A stretch of DNA of 64,000 bases, from the NCBI RefSeq assembly GCF_001298735.1, contig NZ_CYSP01000011.1:120170-184169 (forward strand), given 5' to 3'. The notes beneath the pieces were generated by a model. It was not told the DNA's origin, did no database searches, and was given only the letters and a program-made list of their open reading frames with translations. This DNA comes from Propionispora sp. 2/2-37. GTDB lineage: Bacteria > Bacillota > Negativicutes > Propionisporales > Propionisporaceae. Positions 1,570 through 64,000 of this stretch are shown in pieces; positions within the stretch are counted from its first letter, which is position 1; every line of letters starts with the position of its first letter. The position numbers and the translations under genes are program-made.

Positions 1570-3156
1570 TTATTTGCCCACTTTTACATCCAGCTCAAAC
1601 ATGCGGTTCCAGGGAAAGGCTACCTGAATATCGTCAGGATCAAGCCATAGGTAGCTGCGGCAGAAGAGCTGCAGCCTATGTTCCACCCGGTTCGCGATCT
1701 GCGGGGCCAGCCAATTTAAATAATCCGCCTTCCCTTGATTGGGATACAGCACTTCCAGGCAGATTTCCTTTCTGACATTGGCCTGATACGCCCAGTCATC
1801 CAAATAACGCACCGCCAGCAGCCGTTTACGGTCTTTGTCGGTCATCGCAGGTGCCAGCATTCCCTGCCCGATCGCATACCCCAAAGTATTGCTTGCCGTA
1901 TTCCAGCCGGAATAAGCAGCAACTTTATCGAGCAGGCGGCGTGTAAACATGCCCTGCAGCAGGGAATTATCGGCGCCATTGGCAAAAGCGATATCCGCTA
2001 CAGCTACCGGAATGCCCGCACTAACCGTCTGTTCGACCAGTGTAAGCAGTTGCCCGGTGCTCTCCCTGTTTATGATATAATTAGAAAAATCATCGGCCTC
2101 TTCCGTTCTTCCTGATAACGGCGTATTTACCGCCAGTACCAGATCAGCCTCCTGTGGCTCCTGAATAATAACGCCGCCGGCGGCAATAATATGCTCCGCC
2201 ACCGTCCGGCCAACAGGCTGGTCCTCATAACTGGCAACAGTCCCGGGCCCTGCCCCCGCGGCGTACAGGATTTTAACTGCCGGCCTCTTTCCTGACAGTT
2301 GGTTGCAGGCCCGGGTCAATAGGATCATCCCCAATTGATCGGCCCCCGGAAAGGAAGCATACTTTTCGGACGGCAGCGCAGCCGCAAGCTGCGCCAGCTG
2401 GCGCCATTCCCTGTGTGACTGGGAAAATGGGGCGGCATCATCCCGCCCTAAGATAAGGTAGTCTACGGCCTCCTGCCCGACTAACCCGATTAATTCGGCG
2501 TTAATCCGGTAATTCTTAGTGCGGCGGCTCAACCAATCGTTCAAATGGGCTTCGGAAATCACGGTTTGCAGTTGTGTCAGCCTGTTTTGCTTGTCCGGTG
2601 TCAGCTGGCGGCATTGCGCTTCATCCTGCAGCGCAGTCAGCCAAAAAATATGATTGCCTTCCTGTTCATAATAAGACGGTTCCATCCCGCCGCTGCTTCG
2701 CTGGGGTGATCGCATAACAGTGGCAAAAACAAAAATAGGAATGTGAGGATTTTCTTTCTTCAGCTGCCGGAAAGACTGCAAACGTTCTTCCAAACCGTAA
2801 ATGGGTATATTATGGGTACGGGAATTCACTAACCCGCCATAAAGCAGCGTATCTGCCGATAACACCAGGGCATCAGCCTGCGGGGCACATTGCCGGACCC
2901 ATTGCCACAGCACCTCCGGCCGCCCCTCATGACCGCGCCCTGCCAAAAACTCCACCGGCGGTAGAATAATCTCGTAATTTGCCGCCTTGACCGTCTCCAC
3001 CACATACTGCAGCGAGACCGGCCGGTCATCTGCCGGAACATACAAAATGGTTTTTGCAGAGGCCACGGCAGGTACCAGAATCAATAACAAACTCAGCATG
3101 ACGATTTTATAACCGGCTCGTTTCGACCAAGCAGGCGGCTTTATTACCTGCTTCAT
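1570..3156 (-). CDS. DUF4127 family secreted protein
   Basis: 528 residues from the preferred start. It carries a cleavable-looking signal peptide (hydrophobic core MLSLLLILVPAVASA), then the family hallmark ILYVPADDRPVS, followed by SADTLLYGGLVNSR and LGRDDAAPFS. These blocks identify DUF4127, whose biochemical function is unknown. An ATG 63 bases further upstream is possible, but ATG 3156 is preceded by GGGGTGGTGG and puts the signal peptide at the N terminus. The D-D-R-P and R-D-D-A-A motifs suggest a metal- or sugar-phosphate-handling enzyme, but that is speculation. The protein should be exported to the periplasm or cell surface. Confidence 0.82.
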   Translation of the reverse strand: MKQVIKPPAWSKRAGYKIVMLSLLLILVPAVASAKTILYVPADDRPVSLQYVVETVKAANYEIILPPVEFLAGRGHEGRPEVLWQWVRQCAPQADALVLSADTLLYGGLVNSRTHNIPIYGLEERLQSFRQLKKENPHIPIFVFATVMRSPQRSSGGMEPSYYEQEGNHIFWLTALQDEAQCRQLTPDKQNRLTQLQTVISEAHLNDWLSRRTKNYRINAELIGLVGQEAVDYLILGRDDAAPFSQSHREWRQLAQLAAALPSEKYASFPGADQLGMILLTRACNQLSGKRPAVKILYAAGAGPGTVASYEDQPVGRTVAEHIIAAGGVIIQEPQEADLVLAVNTPLSGRTEEADDFSNYIINRESTGQLLTLVEQTVSAGIPVAVADIAFANGADNSLLQGMFTRRLLDKVAAYSGWNTASNTLGYAIGQGMLAPAMTDKDRKRLLAVRYLDDWAYQANVRKEICLEVLYPNQGKADYLNWLAPQIANRVEHRLQLFCRSYLWLDPDDIQVAFPWNRMFELDVKVGK

Positions 3157-3266
3157 TTTCAAGCAACCACCACCCCGGCCTATATCAAGTTTTTTTATAA
3201 TGTCCAAAATATAGGCCAATCATACAGGCAGTCCAGGGTAAAACTGGGCGCGGTGCACGACGATAA

Positions 3267-3288
3267 GGGACGAGCAGCCACTCGTCCC
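3267..3288. repeat. REP-like hairpin, copy A
   Basis: GGGACGAG and CTCGTCCC form a perfect 8-base stem over CAGCCA. Similar G-rich/C-rich hairpins lie at 54002-54020 and 57255-57273, all in non-coding DNA. No T-run follows, so it is not an obvious terminator. Confidence 0.5.
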
Positions 3289-3370
3289 CAAACTAAAGAC
3301 CGAAGACACTTCCACCGTCCCCGCGTCTTCGATGGAAATTCGATAAGAAATTCCAGGTAGTTCTATAATG

Positions 3371-3412
3371 ACAACAGACGGCTCCCGGCTTACGCCGGTT
3401 GCCGTCTGTTGT
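3371..3412 (-). terminator. Nested stem-loop downstream of hcp
   Basis: A perfect 12-base stem (3371-3382 with 3401-3412) encloses an inner CCGGC/GCCGG stem. It lies 44 bases after the hcp stop. There is no clean T-tract, so it may act as an mRNA 3' stabiliser rather than an intrinsic terminator. Confidence 0.55.
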
Positions 3413-3455
3413 TGTATCATAGGGTTCCCCTGGCACGGCAGCCCCCATCCAAAAG

Positions 3456-5096
3456 CTACGCCATAAATCGTTCCAGGTCGTCCGCCACGCTGCCAACACC
3501 GCCGATTCCGAAATTGTCCACCAGCACTTTTGCTACATTCGGTGATAAAAAGCCCGGTAACGTCGGCCCTAAGTGAATATTTTTAACCCCTAAATGGAGC
3601 AATGCCAGCAAAACGATAACCGCCTTTTGTTCATACCAGGCAATATTGTAGGCAATGGGCAGTTGATTCACATCTTCAAGCCCAAAAACCTCTTTTAATT
3701 TCAGTGCAATCACTGCCAGCGAATAGGAGTCGTTGCATTGTCCGGCATCCAATACGCGGGGAATACCGCCGATGTCGCCAAGTTCCAATTTGTTGTAACG
3801 GTATTTGGCACAGCCGGCCGTCAGAATCACCGTATCCTGCGGCAGCGCCTTGGCAAACTCACTGTAGTAACCCCTGCTTTTCATGCGCCCGTCACAACCG
3901 GCCATAACAAAAAACTTCTTAATGGCACCTGCTTTTACAGCCTCAATCACTTTGTCTGCCAGACTTAATACCTGATGGTGCGCAAAACCGCCGACGATTT
4001 CACCCTGTTCCAGAGCAACCGGAGGTTTGCATTGTTTGGCGTGGTTAATGATTGGCGAAAAATCCTTTGCCCTTCCGTCCACCCGGTCGGGAATCCGCTT
4101 TACGCCGTCAAATCCGACCACTCCGGTAACATACACCCGGTCCCGATAGCTTGCTTTCGGAGTGATCAGACAATTCGTTGTCATTAAAATCGGTCCGTTA
4201 AAAGTCTCAAACTCTTTATCCTGCAGCCACCAGGCATTGCCGTAATTACCTACGAAATGGTCATATTTCTTAAACGCCGGATAATAATGGGCAGGAAGCA
4301 TTTCCCCATGGGTATACACATCTACTCCGGTACCCTTTGTCTGTTCCAGCAGTTCCGCCAAATCCTTCAGATCATGACCGCTGATTAAAATGGCCGGATT
4401 ATTCCGCACTCCAATATTAACTTTGGTAATTTCAGGGTTGCCGTAAGTGGTGGTATTGGCCCGGTCCAAGAGAGCCATAACCTCTACACCGAATTTACCG
4501 CATTCCAGCACCAGGGCCACCAGTTCATCAACACCCAATTGATCGTCGGTCGTGGCCTCCAGCGCCTGCTGCATAAAGGCAAACAAATTTTCATCCTGAT
4601 ACCCCAGCGTAAACGCATGTTCCGCATACGCCGCCATTCCTTTTACGCCATAAATCAGCAGTTCCCGCAGCGAACGTACATCTTCATTTTCGGTTGTCAA
4701 AATGCCGACCGTGGTGGCCTTAACATCAAAATCTTCCGGCGCAGCCGACCATACGGCGCTGTCATGGGCCGCTTCAAAAGCAAGCCCTGCCTTGGCCAGA
4801 TCTGCTTTAACCGCATCGCGGACAGCCAGCGCCTGCTGAATCCTGTCGACAAAATATTGCCGGTCAAAATTCGCATTGGTAATGGTGGCAAATAAAGACT
4901 CCATGACAAACCGGTCAACTTTCGGTTTGGCCAAGCCGGCCTGTCTGGCACGAATATGATATATGGAAATACCTTTTAATGTATAGATCAACAAATCCTG
5001 CAAATTGGCAACATCCGCCGTTTTTCCGCAAACACCGCGCAGTGTGCAGCCTGTCCCCTTGGCGGTTTCCTGACATTGATAGCAAAACATTCCCAT
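3456..5096 (-). CDS. hcp: Hybrid-cluster protein (prismane; hydroxylamine/NO reductase)
   Basis: 546 residues, full length for the anaerobe type. The N-terminal cysteines C5, C8, C17 and C23 (C-x2-C-x8-C-x5-C) bind the [4Fe-4S] cluster. Later conserved cysteines ([47 protein letters not shown]) and glutamates bind the hybrid Fe-S-O cluster. Family members reduce hydroxylamine in vitro and are now viewed mainly as nitric-oxide reductases or S-nitrosylases that protect anaerobes from nitrosative stress. A strong GAGGAGG site precedes the ATG. It is transcribed alone from a CRP/FNR-type promoter described separately. No Hcr reductase gene is adjacent; rubrerythrin lies just upstream on the same strand but has its own leader. 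Confidence 0.96.
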
Positions 5097-57424: not shown

Positions 57425-57490
57425 TGATATGCTCCCCTTGAGGTAGACAGTTTAAATAAAAAAACTGACTACTACAAGGGGAGCATATCA
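57425..57490. mobile_element. MITE-like relic with IS3-type terminal repeats
   Basis: Two 28-base terminal repeats (57425-57452 and 57463-57490) match at 25 of 28 positions, starting TGATATGCTCCCCTTG and ending CAGTT. Only ten bases separate them. TTTT flanks both sides and could be a target duplication. The tips resemble those of IS3-family elements, and the transposase is gone. It could also fold as a 66-base hairpin. Confidence 0.55.
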
Positions 57491-57554: not shown

Positions 57555-57749
57555 TTACTTATCATCAACAAGTTCTAGCTCTTTACCTGGGATTGCAAAT
57601 AATGCTATGGTAATACCATTATTATCTGAAAACTCAACTTCAAAATTCTCCCCGTCATAATCTTCAAGAATAACCCCAATATCCCCTATTTTTATGCCTT
57701 CATCAATATATTTATCAGTTAATAGTCTTACTTTTTGAAATGGTTTCAT
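57555..57749 (-). CDS. DUF4926 protein, probable immunity to the adjacent CdiA toxin
   Basis: 64 residues. MKPFQKVRLLTDKYIDEGIK, then GDIGVILEDYDGENFEVEF and a C-terminal GKELELVDDK. This is the DUF4926 small beta fold found next to toxin domains. It lies 13 bases after the toxin stop on the same strand with a good AGGAGA site, the exact position of a CdiI immunity gene. Neutralisation is inferred from position. Confidence 0.75.
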   Translation of the reverse strand: MKPFQKVRLLTDKYIDEGIKIGDIGVILEDYDGENFEVEFSDNNGITIALFAIPGKELELVDDK

Positions 57750-57762
57750 ATCTTTCCATCTC

Positions 57763-59307
57763 CTACTTTGTAAATCCAGCAAATGGTGTGTTTAATGTTA
57801 AAGAACCATCTGGCTTTATCATCCAACCTGATTTTAAATAACTAGTTTTGCCAGCAGCATCTCCAATGCCAGGAAGCTCAATTTCTATATTGATCCGCTG
57901 ACCAAAGGAGTCTGCCTTTCCAAGTGTATATTCACCCTTTGCAAATTTAGCCGCAGCCTGTTCATTATAAATTTTTATTAGAGATTCAGAATCCTTGACC
58001 CCATATCCTAAATTTTTAAATACCACATCCTTTCCTGGTGCCGCACCGTCCTTAAATATGTACTCAGTAAATTTTCTAATATCAGAGCTTACATTCGAAA
58101 CAGCATTACCCGACCCCTCAGCAATAGCAGAACCACTCGGTATCCGTTCTCCTGTCACTACAACTTCTGGAAGTTGGGGCTCTTTTGCGCCAACACCTAA
58201 TTTTTGAAAGGCACTTGTTCCCTTTGCAGTTGCGTAGGCGGTTAAGACCTGTCCCAACAGTTGACCTTGTGCCTTAGCCTGCGCTTCATCCCCATTATTA
58301 CCTTGGATACTTACAGCCCAATTTTTAAGGCTGTTATATGCTGCTTGCCCAATAGTTGCCGGTAATGTGGGGTCTTGCAACAGTGCCTGGACAAGCTCTT
58401 TTTGTCCTACGGGTGTCATTAGATAGATTAGGTCAATAGTCCCTTTTATGTTGTCTGATATAGTATCTATCAGCGCGGTAGTACGAATGGTCCCCTGTTT
58501 CAGTTGCGCCAGGTTGTATTGTTCTACTGCCCCAGATGCTTGTGAGGTATAAACGGTAATAAAGTCTTCTATACTGGCAAGAGGTATGCCATTTTGTTGC
58601 AGTACGCTACGGATTACGGAAGCTTCCCCTTCTACTGTCGGCTTCCCGTCCGGGAAAACGGCAGTCAAAGCTGCACTTATTTGTGCATTGAGTTCAGCGA
58701 GTTGTTGGTCGGTAGGTTCTTCCCCGTTTTTAGCCCGTAATGCGTCTTTTAAAGCATCTTGCGTATTGGTCAAAAAATATGCAAGAAGGTTATTTTTTGT
58801 TCCACTGACAGCTACAGAACCACCGGTTTGTACATCTCCACCAATGAATTCTGCTACCGTAGCTCCGATAAGGGCACTTGCCCATTGATGCATGGCCGGA
58901 TTGCCTTTGAACATTTCAGTCAGGTGCTTTTGCACCGCTTCATTTATTCCTGCGGCAACAGCTCCTGATAAGGCATCTGCTCCGCTCAGATCTGCCATTA
59001 CTGCTCCAACAAAGGCGTGTAAGGCTATTTTCTGTGGGCTTCCTTCATCCCAATCGTTGGCTTCACTGATTTTATGTACTAGATTAAACGCTACTTCGCC
59101 AAATACCTGCGCCAGTTCTTGTTGTTCTTCTACTGTTTTCTTGTCAAAGATCTTGCCTAAAGCATTGAGTGCATTGGCTGTATCCCGGTTGAGATTGGAA
59201 AGGTCCTGATTCGGATTGTTCCGGATTTCAATGGTTCCCGGTGAAATGGCAGAATGGGTGGTGCTATCCGCAGCTCCGGCTGTGGTTACGCCGATGACGG
59301 GTTCAAG
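57763..59307 (-). pseudogene. CdiA-type exoprotein, C-terminal toxin part (out of frame with upstream part)
   Basis: About 514 codons without a proper start. It begins in the pre-toxin region (EPVIGVTTAGAAD at about 59300), continues TANALNALGKIF, LHAFVGAVMADLSGADALSG and GATVAEFIGGDVQTGG, then a glycine/serine linker. The final 110 residues form a toxin-like domain (KFTEYIFKDGAAPGKDVVF, LGYGVKDSESLIKIYNEQA, ADSFGQRINIEIEL, SYLKSGWMIKPDGSL), similar to DUF6883-type toxins. The frame is shifted by one base relative to the upstream part near 59296-59312. An ATG at 58998 exists but lies mid-domain. Confidence 0.8.
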
Positions 59308-60866
59308 CCTTGTTCGCTCTGTTTGGCATCCGGTTTGGTATTGAGGGTATAGCCTTTGCTGCTGGAGGAGTATTCGGCCTTGTTTTGTATATCACCAAAG
59401 GTCAACGTATCGGTAGAGAGTTTGTTCTTGTCCGGTGTAGCCTCACTGCTGATGACCGCGCCCTGCAGGTCGGTATTGCCTCCTACCGTGATGTCGAAAC
59501 CTTTGTCCCCGGCGTAGATCCCGGCTTGTTCGGTCACACTGGCATAGTCGGAGTTGGTTTTGCCTTTGCTAACAGATCCGGTTATACCGCCATTTGCTCC
59601 GGTACTGAAGCCGATTCCGCTGCTACTGGTTTTCTCTGTATAGGTGTCGGTATCCTGCAGGCTGACGATATTCAGATCGCCTTTACTATCCACTGTCACT
59701 TGATCGCCTTTTACCTGTGAGCCGATGATGTTGGTATCGTTGCCGGACAGGAGCTCCACTTGATCACTGGCGGTAACCACGGTACCGGTATGGGTTGTCA
59801 CCGTGCCATTTCCCTTGCTGCTGCCTTTGCTGACACTGCCAAAGATTCCGGCATTCAGGCTGACACCTGCTGACCAGGAGGAGCTTTCCGATTTGCTGGT
59901 GGTCTGCTGCAAATTCTGAGCGGCGGTAAGGTTAATATCACCGGCAGCATCCAGCTTGACGTCTTTGGCGTCAATTTTTGTTCCCTGCAGGGTCACATCG
60001 TCTGTTGTGGCGGTAATGTTCACGGCTTGACCGGCAGTGATGTTGGACGGATTGACGGTTTCTATATGAACGGTTTGCTCGGTAGTGCTTTTACTGCTGC
60101 CGATGCTGATATTGACGGAAACACCCTTTTTCAGGTTCTCTTTATTGACGCCGCTTTCCAGTTGATCGCTTATCTTTTTAATATCTTGTGAGGCTTTGTA
60201 ATCATAAAGGACTTTCAAGCGTTCATCGCTTACTTCATTAGCCCGTTGGATATGATTTAACGCATCGGTACCCGTATCGACAACACCACCGCCTAACGAA
60301 ACGGTGACGCCGCTTTGTTTGAACTCATATTTGGTCTTGCTGTCGTAGGTGTCTACCGTGTTATCTATGGTAACGTCTTTACCGGTAATATTGATATCCT
60401 TGCCGGCAATCAGGGTGGCTCCGGCACTCTGGACTTGATTGTCGGCGATCATATTCACATTGCCGTCAAGGGAGCCAACCGTACTGCCCACCTGGCCGAT
60501 GATTTTTTCATCAACTGTCAGCTTCTCACTTTTACTGCCAATGGTAAAGCCTAGGCCACCACCGGAAAAGAGGCCGGATTTCTTAGTGTATTTATAGTGC
60601 TCGGAGGCTCCGGTTTCCGCCGCGCTTTCCAGGGTAAGGTCATGCTTGGCGGTTAGGTCAACGTCATTCGTGCCGACCACGCTGCTGGCCTTCAGCGTGA
60701 TATCGTTTCCGGAGTCCATGTCAACCGCATTCCCGGAGATGGTGCTGCCGACTACTTCGTTGACGAGGGAGTGGTCACGTTTGACGGTTGTCTTCTTGGA
60801 AAAGAAACCGGATTTGGTTTTCTTGGATTCGGTTAGGGTTTCATGTTTTTCGGTGACGAGGAACAT
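59286..60866 (-). pseudogene. CdiA-type exoprotein, central part
   Basis: 526 codons. It opens inside a conserved block (VTEKHETLTESKKTKSGFFS, TTVKRDHSLVNEVVGSTISG) and continues with FHA-2 type repeats (LKASSVVGTNDVDLTAKHDL, GDINLTAAQNLQQ, TNIIGSQVKGDQV). The apparent ATG (60866) lies within the junction to the inverted segment and is not a true start. It ends early at TAA 59286 because of the frameshift. In an intact gene it would join the fragments on both sides. Confidence 0.85.
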
Positions 60867-61022
60867 GCACTATGACGAAACCACCATCGGCACCAATCTT
60901 GCCGCAAGCCAAGATATTTCCCTAAAAGCCGCCGGAGATATCACCCTAGCCGGCAGCTCCGCCGTCAGTGAACAAGGCACCGTCAGTGTAGACGCCGGAA
61001 AAGATATCGCCATCCGGGAGTA
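60865..61022 (+). other. Apparent inverted segment inside the cdiA-like gene
   Basis: On the + strand this 158-base stretch reads MHYDETTIGTNLAASQDIS and continues KAAGDITLAGSSAVSEQGTV, VDAGKDIAIRE, then stops. That is CdiA/FHA sequence of the kind that directly precedes KHETLTESKKTKSGFFS, which starts the central part on the - strand. Both flanks are coded on the - strand. The segment is therefore turned around in place. The leftward frames here give unrelated residues (PGWRYLFRRLH) and a stop. Confidence 0.85.
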
Positions 61023-64000
61023 ACGATGACGTTGCTGACACTAGTTCCGTCAATGACGACCTGCTGCCCACCGCCGAAGAGGGCGGTGCTACTGCTGCCA
61101 GGTATTATTTCAATGTCTACCACTTCATCATAAAGAAAATCAATATCAACAGATACGGCCCAAAGGTAGGGATCACCTTCATTTCCAACCTCAAAACTGG
61201 CCAGTGCATAATGTTTTATGGTCTTACTATTACCGCTAAACGCTTGATTAGTAATATTACCCTTACTAAACAGATTTTTTCCTGCCAACAGCCAACTGTT
61301 ATCATTGAGAGTATTCGTTGCTTGAAGGGTTAGATTGCGACCAGCTACGATTTTCCCCTCCGGAGAATCTTTAAGTATTTGCGTTTTAGTACGGCTTTGT
61401 CCTCTGTACAATATTAACTTATTATTATCTTCATGCCCCCATGATTCGATCTGCAGGTCATATCTAAGGAAGCCATCCAGCGCATTCATTTCATCCAACC
61501 CCGTAACAATTATGCCATACCGCCCCCCTTCCTCCAAAGGATACATGCCATCTGTAATGATAGTCTGCGCTGTCTCGAACTCCTGTTTCTTATTCACCAC
61601 CTCGTCAGCGTAAATCACGATATCCCCGTCCGCCTCAATATTGGCCGACTGATTGGTAAGCGTTTTAGCTCTGGTAGTATACTCGCCGTTTTCCTGTTCC
61701 TTACTACCGGCAATATCAATATTGCCCATACTGTAAATAAGCGCTCCATCCTGATTGTCCAGTCCAGTCTTGGCATACAGGTTGACACTGTCGGTAGCCG
61801 CTATAGCTGCCGTCTCCCCGGCATTGACAATGTTGTCTGCCAATACGTTGATATCCCTGCCGAACAGGCTGCCGCCGTTATGTACATCGTCAACCGCCGT
61901 TACGTTCACGTTATCGTTGGCGGCCAAGGTTCCCCCGGCCTGATTATCGACTTGCTGCGCGCTGAGGTCCAGGTTTTCTTCGGCTTCCATGGTGCCGCTG
62001 TTAGTGACGGTTCCCGTTGCCGTTACGTTAAGATCCTTAGCTGCCAGTTTACCTTGGGCATTGTGAACGTCTACTGCCTGAATGTCCAGCTTGCGTCCGG
62101 CCTGCACGGCTCCTTTCTCATTGATAAAGTCCGCCGCTTGCTGCACCAGGGTCAGGTCCTGTCCTGACGTCAGTTCTCCACTCGTGTTGGTCATACCGCC
62201 TGCTGCCTCAATCAGTAGGTTATCAGCACTGACTATCTGCCCGCCGGTATTGTCGAGCGTCTTAGCCCGGATGTTGGCCGCTCCGTTACTGCCAATGAGG
62301 CCCTGCCGGTTATTGAGTGCGTCTGCTACGGTCAGGTGAAGGCCGCTCTGATCCAGACTGATCAGTTTGCCGTTCTCGTTTTGAATGGTTCCGGCCGACA
62401 GCGTTAGGCCTTGGCCTGCCTCGACCGTGCCGTTTTGATTCGCTAGTGCGTTTGTGATTTCCAGGCTGACGTCACCGCTGCCGACCATCACGCCGGACCG
62501 GTTATCCAAATTGTCCGTCTTAGCCGTCAAAGCACCCTGGGCCGATAGCGTCCCCTGCCCATTATCGATTTGACGGCCCTTTAGGGCAAGGGCACCGTTG
62601 CTGATCATTTGGCCCCCGTTATTTAGCAGGTCGCCACTGGCCGTTACGCTGAGTTTGCCGCTGCCGGCATGCTGGATTTGACCCTGGCTGTTATCGAGCT
62701 CGCTGGCGTTAATCGCTAAATTGCCACTATTGGCGGCAATCTCTCCCCCGGTGTTATCGAGTTTGCCGGTATTCAGGACAAAGTCGCTCTGTCCGTATTG
62801 AGCCAGAAGGCCGCTGCGGTTGGTTATATCCTTGGCAGTAAGCTGTAGTTGGTTTGCCCTGGTCTCAGCCGCATCATTGACAAGGGTATTGGCCGCCACT
62901 ATCGTCAGACTGTCATTTGCGGTCAGCTTTCCCCCGCTGTTGTCCATATCGCCGACAGTTGCCGTGATAACTGCGGTATGGCCGGAGTAGGTTTCAGCCC
63001 CACGGATATCCACAGTGGTTCCCTGCAGGGAAAGACTGCCACCGGCCAAGGTTTTCCCGGTCGCTGTTAGGCTGCCATTGGCCAGGAGCGTTAAATTGCC
63101 GGAACTTCCCAATGCTCCCCCGTCAGCCAACCCGGCCGCCAGCGTTCCGGTCGAAACAATGGTTCCTCCTGTTATATCAATGTCGGTATTGCTAGTAATG
63201 ACCCCGCTGGTCGTCAATTGGTCTTGGGCCGCGATCATTGCCCGGCCTTTGCTATAAATGGTGCCTTGATTACGTACTTCTTGCTGCACCAGGTCGAGCT
63301 GGCTGCCGCTGGTAATAGCGGCTCCATCTTCATTGTTTAAACTGCCGCTATGGATTTGCAGACCTTTCAAGGCGGTTAACCTGCCGGAATTGGTTACCGT
63401 TCCGCCCGCACCGACCGTCAGGTTTCCGCCGGCCTGCGCTGCGGTATGTACAGTGACATCGGCTGCTGCCTGAATCGCCACGTCTTTACCGGCTTGCAGT
63501 TTGTCCGCCGCAAAACTTCCGGCACCAATGGTGATATTCTCATTAGCGGAGAATTCGCCGCCGCTTATATCCGTCGTCCCAGCAAAAATCAACAGATCAC
63601 GGCCGGCCTGCAGCGCTCCTTCTGTATTGGTTATCCCTCCGCCGAGTTGTTCTACGCTTAGATCATTGCCGGCTAATACGGCCCCGCCGTCATTATGCAA
63701 TTGTTCAGCGATTGTTAGGGTTACATCCTGTTTGGCACTGATTTCTCCCCCGTTGCTGTTATCCAGGTCTCCCGCGGCTATTGTTACCTTGCCGTTGCCA
63801 CCAATGATTCCGGCCTGGTTTTCCAGTTTTTCTGCCGCCTCAATGCGCAGTTCGCTATCAGCCAGGCTGATGACAGTGCCCTGTCCGTTGGTTATTGAGC
63901 CGGCGTTTAAGGCCAGTGCCTGCTCTGCTTCGATGAGTCCGGTTTGGTTGTCAATCTCCTGCGCCGCAATTCGCATGGCTTTCCGGCTAACGATCTCTCC
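60983..64000 (-). pseudogene. CdiA-type exoprotein, upstream part (runs off the window)
   Basis: Open leftward from the window edge to 60983, over 1000 codons. It is made of degenerate FHA repeats of about 20 residues, of the form L-x-A-x-x-I-x-N-x-x-G-x-I (for example SAGTIQNENGKLISLDQSGL, LDNRSGVMVGSGDVSLEI). Near the end are EQENGEYTTRAKTLTNQSAN and QQVVIDGTSVSNVIV, the FHA/CdiA spacer before the repeat 2 region. The last residues (PGWRYLFRRLH) are antisense of the inverted segment. TpsA-type proteins of this kind are exported by a TpsB/CdiB pore, not seen here. Confidence 0.85.

What the first reader, a model, noticed from the sequence alone, without database searches (positions are those of the whole stretch)
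60850..61040. A ~155-bp piece of the cdiA-like gene is inverted in place
The gene runs leftward, but bases 60865-61022 encode FHA/CdiA sequence (HYDETTIGTNLAASQD...VDAGKDIAIRE) only on the + strand. Read in the reverse sense it would join the upstream VSNVIV part to the VTEKHETLTESKKTKSG part almost seamlessly. Inversion destroys the frame, so no full-length effector can be made in this orientation. A short invertible segment in a surface toxin would be a phase-variation switch of a kind I do not know from CDI systems. I found no strong inverted repeats at the borders, so a one-off rearrangement, template switching or an assembly artefact must be considered.
Basis: partly seen in the sequence, partly recalled or inferred. 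Interest (0 to 1): 0.88.

Follow-up and report, generated by a model that had tools for sequence, protein, structure and literature searches.

The report
Toxin-delivery gene broken by inverted fragment
A CdiA-like surface-protein gene in this bacterium carries a 163-base piece that lies backwards and lacks a stretch of about 1 to 2.5 kilobases that its relatives have, most likely a one-time copying or repair accident that broke the gene rather than an on/off switch.

Summary
The inversion is in the sequence. Bases 60858-61020 encode an FHA/CdiA segment on the + strand, while the gene on both sides runs on the - strand. Of 82 distinct FHA-2 start sites in the 131 loci held, 62 have the matching segment directly upstream on the same strand (50 at exactly 0 nt), 5 have it elsewhere on the same strand, 13 have none detectable, 1 is cut by a contig end, and only the window has it reversed. 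'In place' is incomplete: in the 9 relatives where both ends could be placed, 377-899 residues separate the upstream piece from FHA-2, against 52 in the window. The region between was found in this genome only inside two other long copies. A frame change near 59300 separately cuts off the C-terminal part. Border inverted repeats do not exceed chance, and no recombinase domain appeared in the 16 window proteins scanned. The three other copies found in this genome have the normal orientation. Best reading: a recent one-off deletion-inversion that left a pseudogene. A library chimera cannot be excluded without reads. A phase-variation switch is unlikely.

The parts
60858..61020 (+). Inverted segment (D): FHA-type sequence coded on the strand opposite to the rest of the gene
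61016..64000 (-). Upstream piece (A): FHA-1 repeat region, open to the contig end; the ORF with a start codon is 60983-63976, its last codons lie in the inverted segment
   Evidence: (PF05594)
59286..60866 (-). Downstream piece (E): FHA-2 region, homology begins at 60857; its first codons (60858-60866) come from the inverted segment
   Evidence: (PF13332)
60857..60858 (.). Border E / inverted segment; no clear shared bases (by eye, inferred)
61016..61020 (.). Border inverted segment / A; 4-5 bases could belong to either side (by eye against L037, inferred); relatives have 377-899 residues between A and E
59298..59337 (-). Region of a second lesion: relatives' single frame passes from one - frame to another here
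57763..59391 (-). Pretoxin and C-terminal domain (DUF6883), in another frame than E
57555..57782 (-). Small ORF with DUF4926 just downstream, candidate immunity gene (inferred from position)

Best explanation
This is a CdiA-like gene on the - strand that was most likely broken by a single, recent, non-programmed deletion-inversion: about 1 to 2.5 kb between the FHA-1 and FHA-2 regions is missing and the last 163 bp before FHA-2 lies backwards. Shown by calls: the reversed coding sense, the direct abutment of segment and FHA-2 in relatives, the missing spacing, the second frame change. Inferred: the mechanism. The geometry (one border clean to the codon, the other with 4-5 shared bases, net loss on one side only) would fit a microhomology-guided template switch during repair or replication, in which the copying end passed to the opposite strand, copied 163 bases back to the point it had left, and resumed beyond the missing region. 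The product would be a pseudogene; its C-terminal domain and the downstream small ORF remain as a silent cassette. The absence of stop codons in A, D and E suggests that the event is young.
For: Relatives align A and E to - frames and the segment to a + frame (6 of 11 query frames gave the + hit at the cut-off). Segment and E abut at 0 nt in 50 of 62 same-strand adjacent sites. Spacing A to E is 377-899 residues in 9 of 9 measurable relatives, 52 in the window. The missing region, searched with a 630-residue piece of a Pelosinus relative, is found in this genome only inside copies on C2 and C28. Segment identity to relatives (up to 63%) is like that of E to the same relatives (62% for L097, 62% for L037), so it most simply belonged to this gene. 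All 11 query frames cross to another - frame near 59300. Another copy, on C13, is also truncated and has an in-frame stop, so decay of extra copies occurs in this genome. An overlap of at most 5 bases at either border is too short for an assembler to have made the joins without reads that span them (inference).
Against: No reads were available, and no second assembly of this strain was found: the best non-self protein match to E is 52% identical (120 of 988 hits listed). The contig ends 3 kb away inside the same gene. The A-end alignments behind the spacing are weak in some relatives (21-31% identity). The 4-5 base overlap is read by eye against one relative and could be chance. A two-step history is also possible.
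Confidence: 0.72

Rival explanations
1. Artefact: a chimeric library molecule, amplification product or wrong gap closure placed a reversed fragment next to FHA-2 and dropped the region between; the living strain has a normal gene.
For: Draft genome of 43 contigs with a contamination estimate of 7.36; the contig ends within this gene; several CdiA-like copies in the genome, two of them (C2, C13) within about 2 kb of a contig start and one (C28) running to a contig end. Inverted chimeras are the dominant single-end chimera type in whole-genome-amplified DNA (PMC6515389, passages). The frame change near 59300 could be a sequence error.
Against: The segment, E and the 700 bp around them are single-copy in the assembly, other copies being at most 56% identical to E, so repeat collapse gives no obvious bridge. 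The missing region is not left on any other contig, though short contigs may have been discarded before deposition. The border overlaps are far shorter than an assembler overlap (inference). The last 600 bp of the contig are single-copy in the assembly. Whether this genome was amplified is unknown.
Confidence: 0.2
2. A reversible invertible segment: site-specific recombination flips the 163-bp piece and switches the effector on and off.
For: Clean border at the E side; open, conserved coding on the reversed strand; location in a surface protein, a usual kind of target for invertons (PMC11892184, passages).
Against: Border inverted repeat 5 nt, no better than chance, against 10-40 nt described for invertons (PMC11892184, passages); no reversed relative among the other 81 sites; no recombinase domain in 16 proteins scanned; the missing region and second lesion mean neither orientation would encode a normal protein.
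Confidence: 0.03
3. Two steps: the whole region between A and E inverted first, then most of it was deleted, leaving the reversed end piece next to A.
For: Same final order of pieces; the end of the segment that normally touches E now touches A.
Against: The second deletion would have had to start within a few bases of the first break without removing any of E, which needs a coincidence.
Confidence: 0.05

Closest known systems
CdiA / two-partner-secreted filamentous haemagglutinin family (FHA-1, FHA-2, C-terminal toxin, downstream immunity gene)
   Same: PF05594 upstream, PF13332 downstream, C-terminal DUF6883 domain and a small DUF4926 ORF after it; long uninterrupted relatives in Pelosinus, Sporomusa and others
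   Different: Here the gene is in at least three pieces: reversed segment, missing region, frame change; its 5' end is off the contig
Intragenic invertons (Chanin et al., Nature 2024; seen only as a reference-list entry, content recalled)
   Same: Short reversed piece within a coding sequence that changes the frame
   Different: No inverted repeats at the borders above chance, no reversed/unreversed pair seen, and a net deletion on one side
Microinversions attributed to template switching or microhomology-mediated break-induced replication (human/chimpanzee work, PMC8755829, passages)
   Same: Short precise inversion explained without a dedicated recombinase
   Different: Those are under 33 bp, flanked by inverted repeats and in primates; this one is 163 bp with a deletion of about 1-2.5 kb
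Orphan cdiA-CT/cdiI modules (PMC4927057, passages)
   Same: A toxin/immunity end kept without an intact delivery protein, possible silent reserve
   Different: Orphans there are displaced 3' ends downstream of a working cluster; here the breakage lies inside what was a long gene

Membership tests
CdiA-like effector | FHA-1 repeats followed by FHA-2 repeats | tested here: met
   PF05594 in 60983-63976 and PF13332 in 59286-60866
CdiA-like effector | N-terminal TPS domain and signal, partner CdiB | tested here: inconclusive
   This gene runs off the contig. TPS domains lie on C2, C17, C28 and CdiB-type proteins on C2 and C17, none on C11
CdiA-like effector | One continuous frame from FHA-1 to the C-terminal domain | tested here: not met
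   Reversed segment and missing region and frame change near 59300
CdiA-like effector | Variable C-terminal toxin with a downstream immunity gene | tested here: inconclusive
   DUF6883 domain and an adjacent DUF4926 ORF by sequence; toxicity and immunity untested
Invertible element (inverton) | Inverted repeats of about 10-40 nt at both borders | tested here: not met
   Longest 5 nt; 92% of 2000 random pairs as long or longer; none pairs the two borders
Invertible element (inverton) | Both orientations occur | tested here: inconclusive
   0 of the other 81 homologous sites reversed, but no reads or sibling strain of the same species were available
Invertible element (inverton) | Recombinase gene available | tested here: inconclusive
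   None among 16 window proteins scanned with Pfam; the rest of the genome was not searched for recombinases
Template-switch / microhomology-mediated rearrangement | Short shared bases at borders without longer homology | tested here: inconclusive
   4-5 bases at one border, none clear at the other, judged by eye against one relative

The most novel reading that the evidence does not exclude
A 163-bp piece inside a contact-dependent-inhibition effector gene flips without recognisable inverted repeats and locks the effector off, leaving its toxin and immunity end as a silent cassette that can be reused by recombination with another copy through the shared FHA-2 region.
Probability: 0.04. Interest if true: 0.8.

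Novelty: new member of a known kind. Interest (0 to 1): 0.2.

Why it matters
It is a sharply readable example of how a large CdiA-like gene can die: an inversion and a deletion in one place with no point decay yet in the pieces. If reads confirm it, it gives a dated case of a non-programmed short inversion in a bacterium. It also warns that reversed pieces in surface-toxin genes of draft genomes need a spacing check against relatives before they are called switches.

Tried and rejected
Phase-variation switch: rejected as leading idea on border repeats, the homologous-site survey and the missing region. Segment copied in from another copy in the genome: the other copies are only 29-41% identical to it. 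Segment as an ordinary antisense ORF: rejected, it matches the FHA sequence that directly precedes FHA-2 in relatives. A normal but short gene type in which A touches the segment: not seen in the 9 measurable relatives. One reversed weak hit appeared in L042 (E 0.2), with a + hit of E 1 beside it; I treated it as noise, with its E-value limit of 0.05 and tighter position limits, counts that site among the 13 with no detectable segment. L020 and L081 are one place counted in two registers. In one search only up to 4 candidates per genome were scored and the list was cut. Protein search for a second assembly: only the window's own protein at 100%, next 52% (7997 candidates scored, lengths 0.55-1.75 of the query, so full-length siblings could not appear). 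Literature searches for intragenic inversions, inversions in filamentous haemagglutinin, and CdiA with inversion or pseudogene gave no paper on an inverted segment in a CDI gene; two searches returned nothing, the others were seen as listings and, for two papers, passages.

Full report
What the window holds. The window is part of a 4.12-Mb draft genome in 43 contigs; it lies at C11:120170-184169, and window base 64000 is the end of that contig. The genus is probably Propionispora (Negativicutes): a contig of a same-genus genome (G001, C29, 55527 bases) has the same length as the contig behind a Propionispora vibrioides protein. On the - strand the window ends in a CdiA-like gene: FHA-1 repeats (PF05594), FHA-2 repeats (PF13332), then a C-terminal DUF6883 domain and a small DUF4926 ORF.

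The reversed segment. The + strand of 60858-61020 is open and reads an FHA-type sequence; relatives match it at up to 63% identity, E 8e-22. Thirty relatives' frames matched the + reading at E 1e-3; three matched the - reading, the best of them the window's own frame. In one search, 6 of 11 query frames gave the segment as a + hit at E 1e-3, while all 11 gave FHA-2 on the - strand.

Control survey. I placed the FHA-2 start in the 131 loci then held and found 82 distinct starts. In 62 the segment lies directly upstream on the same strand within 12 nt, 50 of them at exactly 0 nt; in 5 the best hit is on the same strand elsewhere; in 13 none passes E 0.05; one start is at a contig end; the window is the single reversed case. 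L020 and L081 are one place counted twice. The three other copies found in this genome (C2, C13, C28) are in the normal group. The loci come and the own-genome searches, and favour close relatives of this gene.

The missing region. In the 9 relatives where both the end of the FHA-1 piece and the start of FHA-2 could be placed, the spacing is 377-899 residues; in the window it is 52. The relative closest to the FHA-1 piece, a Pelosinus gene (L037), has 678. Some of these alignments are weak (21% identity for the C28 copy, 26% for L049). Allowing for the segment itself, about 320-850 residues (1-2.5 kb) are missing. A 630-residue Pelosinus piece covering that region finds only the two other long copies in this genome, at 40% and 38%. 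So the finding is an inversion with a deletion, not an inversion in place.

Second lesion. All 11 relatives' frames pass without a stop through a place near 59300 at which the window changes frame; E ends at 59286 and the C-terminal part is open in another frame. I did not work out how to undo it.

Mechanism. The border with FHA-2 is clean to the codon in relatives. At the other border 4-5 bases could belong to either side, judged by eye against L037. The two borders share no inverted repeat above chance: 5 nt longest, 92% of 2000 random pairs at least as long; by score 42% at least as good. Pfam scans of 16 window proteins showed no recombinase. This favours an accident of repair or replication such as a microhomology-guided template switch; that step is inferred. 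Work on primate microinversions discusses such routes (PMC8755829, passages), for much shorter inversions flanked by inverted repeats.

Real or artefact. For real: borders and segment are single-copy, the contig's last 600 bp also, the missing region is not left on another contig, and overlaps at the borders are too short to be assembler joins (inference). For artefact: a draft genome, several CdiA-like copies near contig ends, the gene itself cut by a contig end, and no second assembly. Inverted chimeras dominate single-end chimeras in amplified DNA (PMC6515389, passages), but whether this DNA was amplified is unknown.

Decay as background. The C13 copy begins only shortly before FHA-2 and has an in-frame stop there, so 2 of the 4 copies found in this genome are broken. 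The C2 copy is a 2518-aa frame with TPS domain and a CdiB-type protein beside it.

Verdict. An ordinary, if unusually legible, broken gene. The inversion is a sound observation; the switch is not supported.

Noticed in passing
window 57425-57490: A 29-nt inverted repeat with an 8-nt loop resembles DNA just before an HTH gene and an IS3 transposase on a Paenibacillus larvae plasmid; possibly two abutting IS3-type ends left after excision, only inferred.
   Followed up: partly
window 57555-59391: DUF6883 C-terminal domain followed by an overlapping DUF4926 ORF: a candidate toxin/immunity pair kept although the delivery part is broken.
   Followed up: partly
L066 (G000:C13:1-6500), 1848-3797: Another CdiA-like copy that starts only shortly before FHA-2 and has an in-frame stop.
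   Followed up: partly
   Followed up: no
G082:C1:1393419 and G020:C7:110480: Open frames of 7230 and 6685 residues containing the FHA-2 match: very large members of the family.
   Followed up: no
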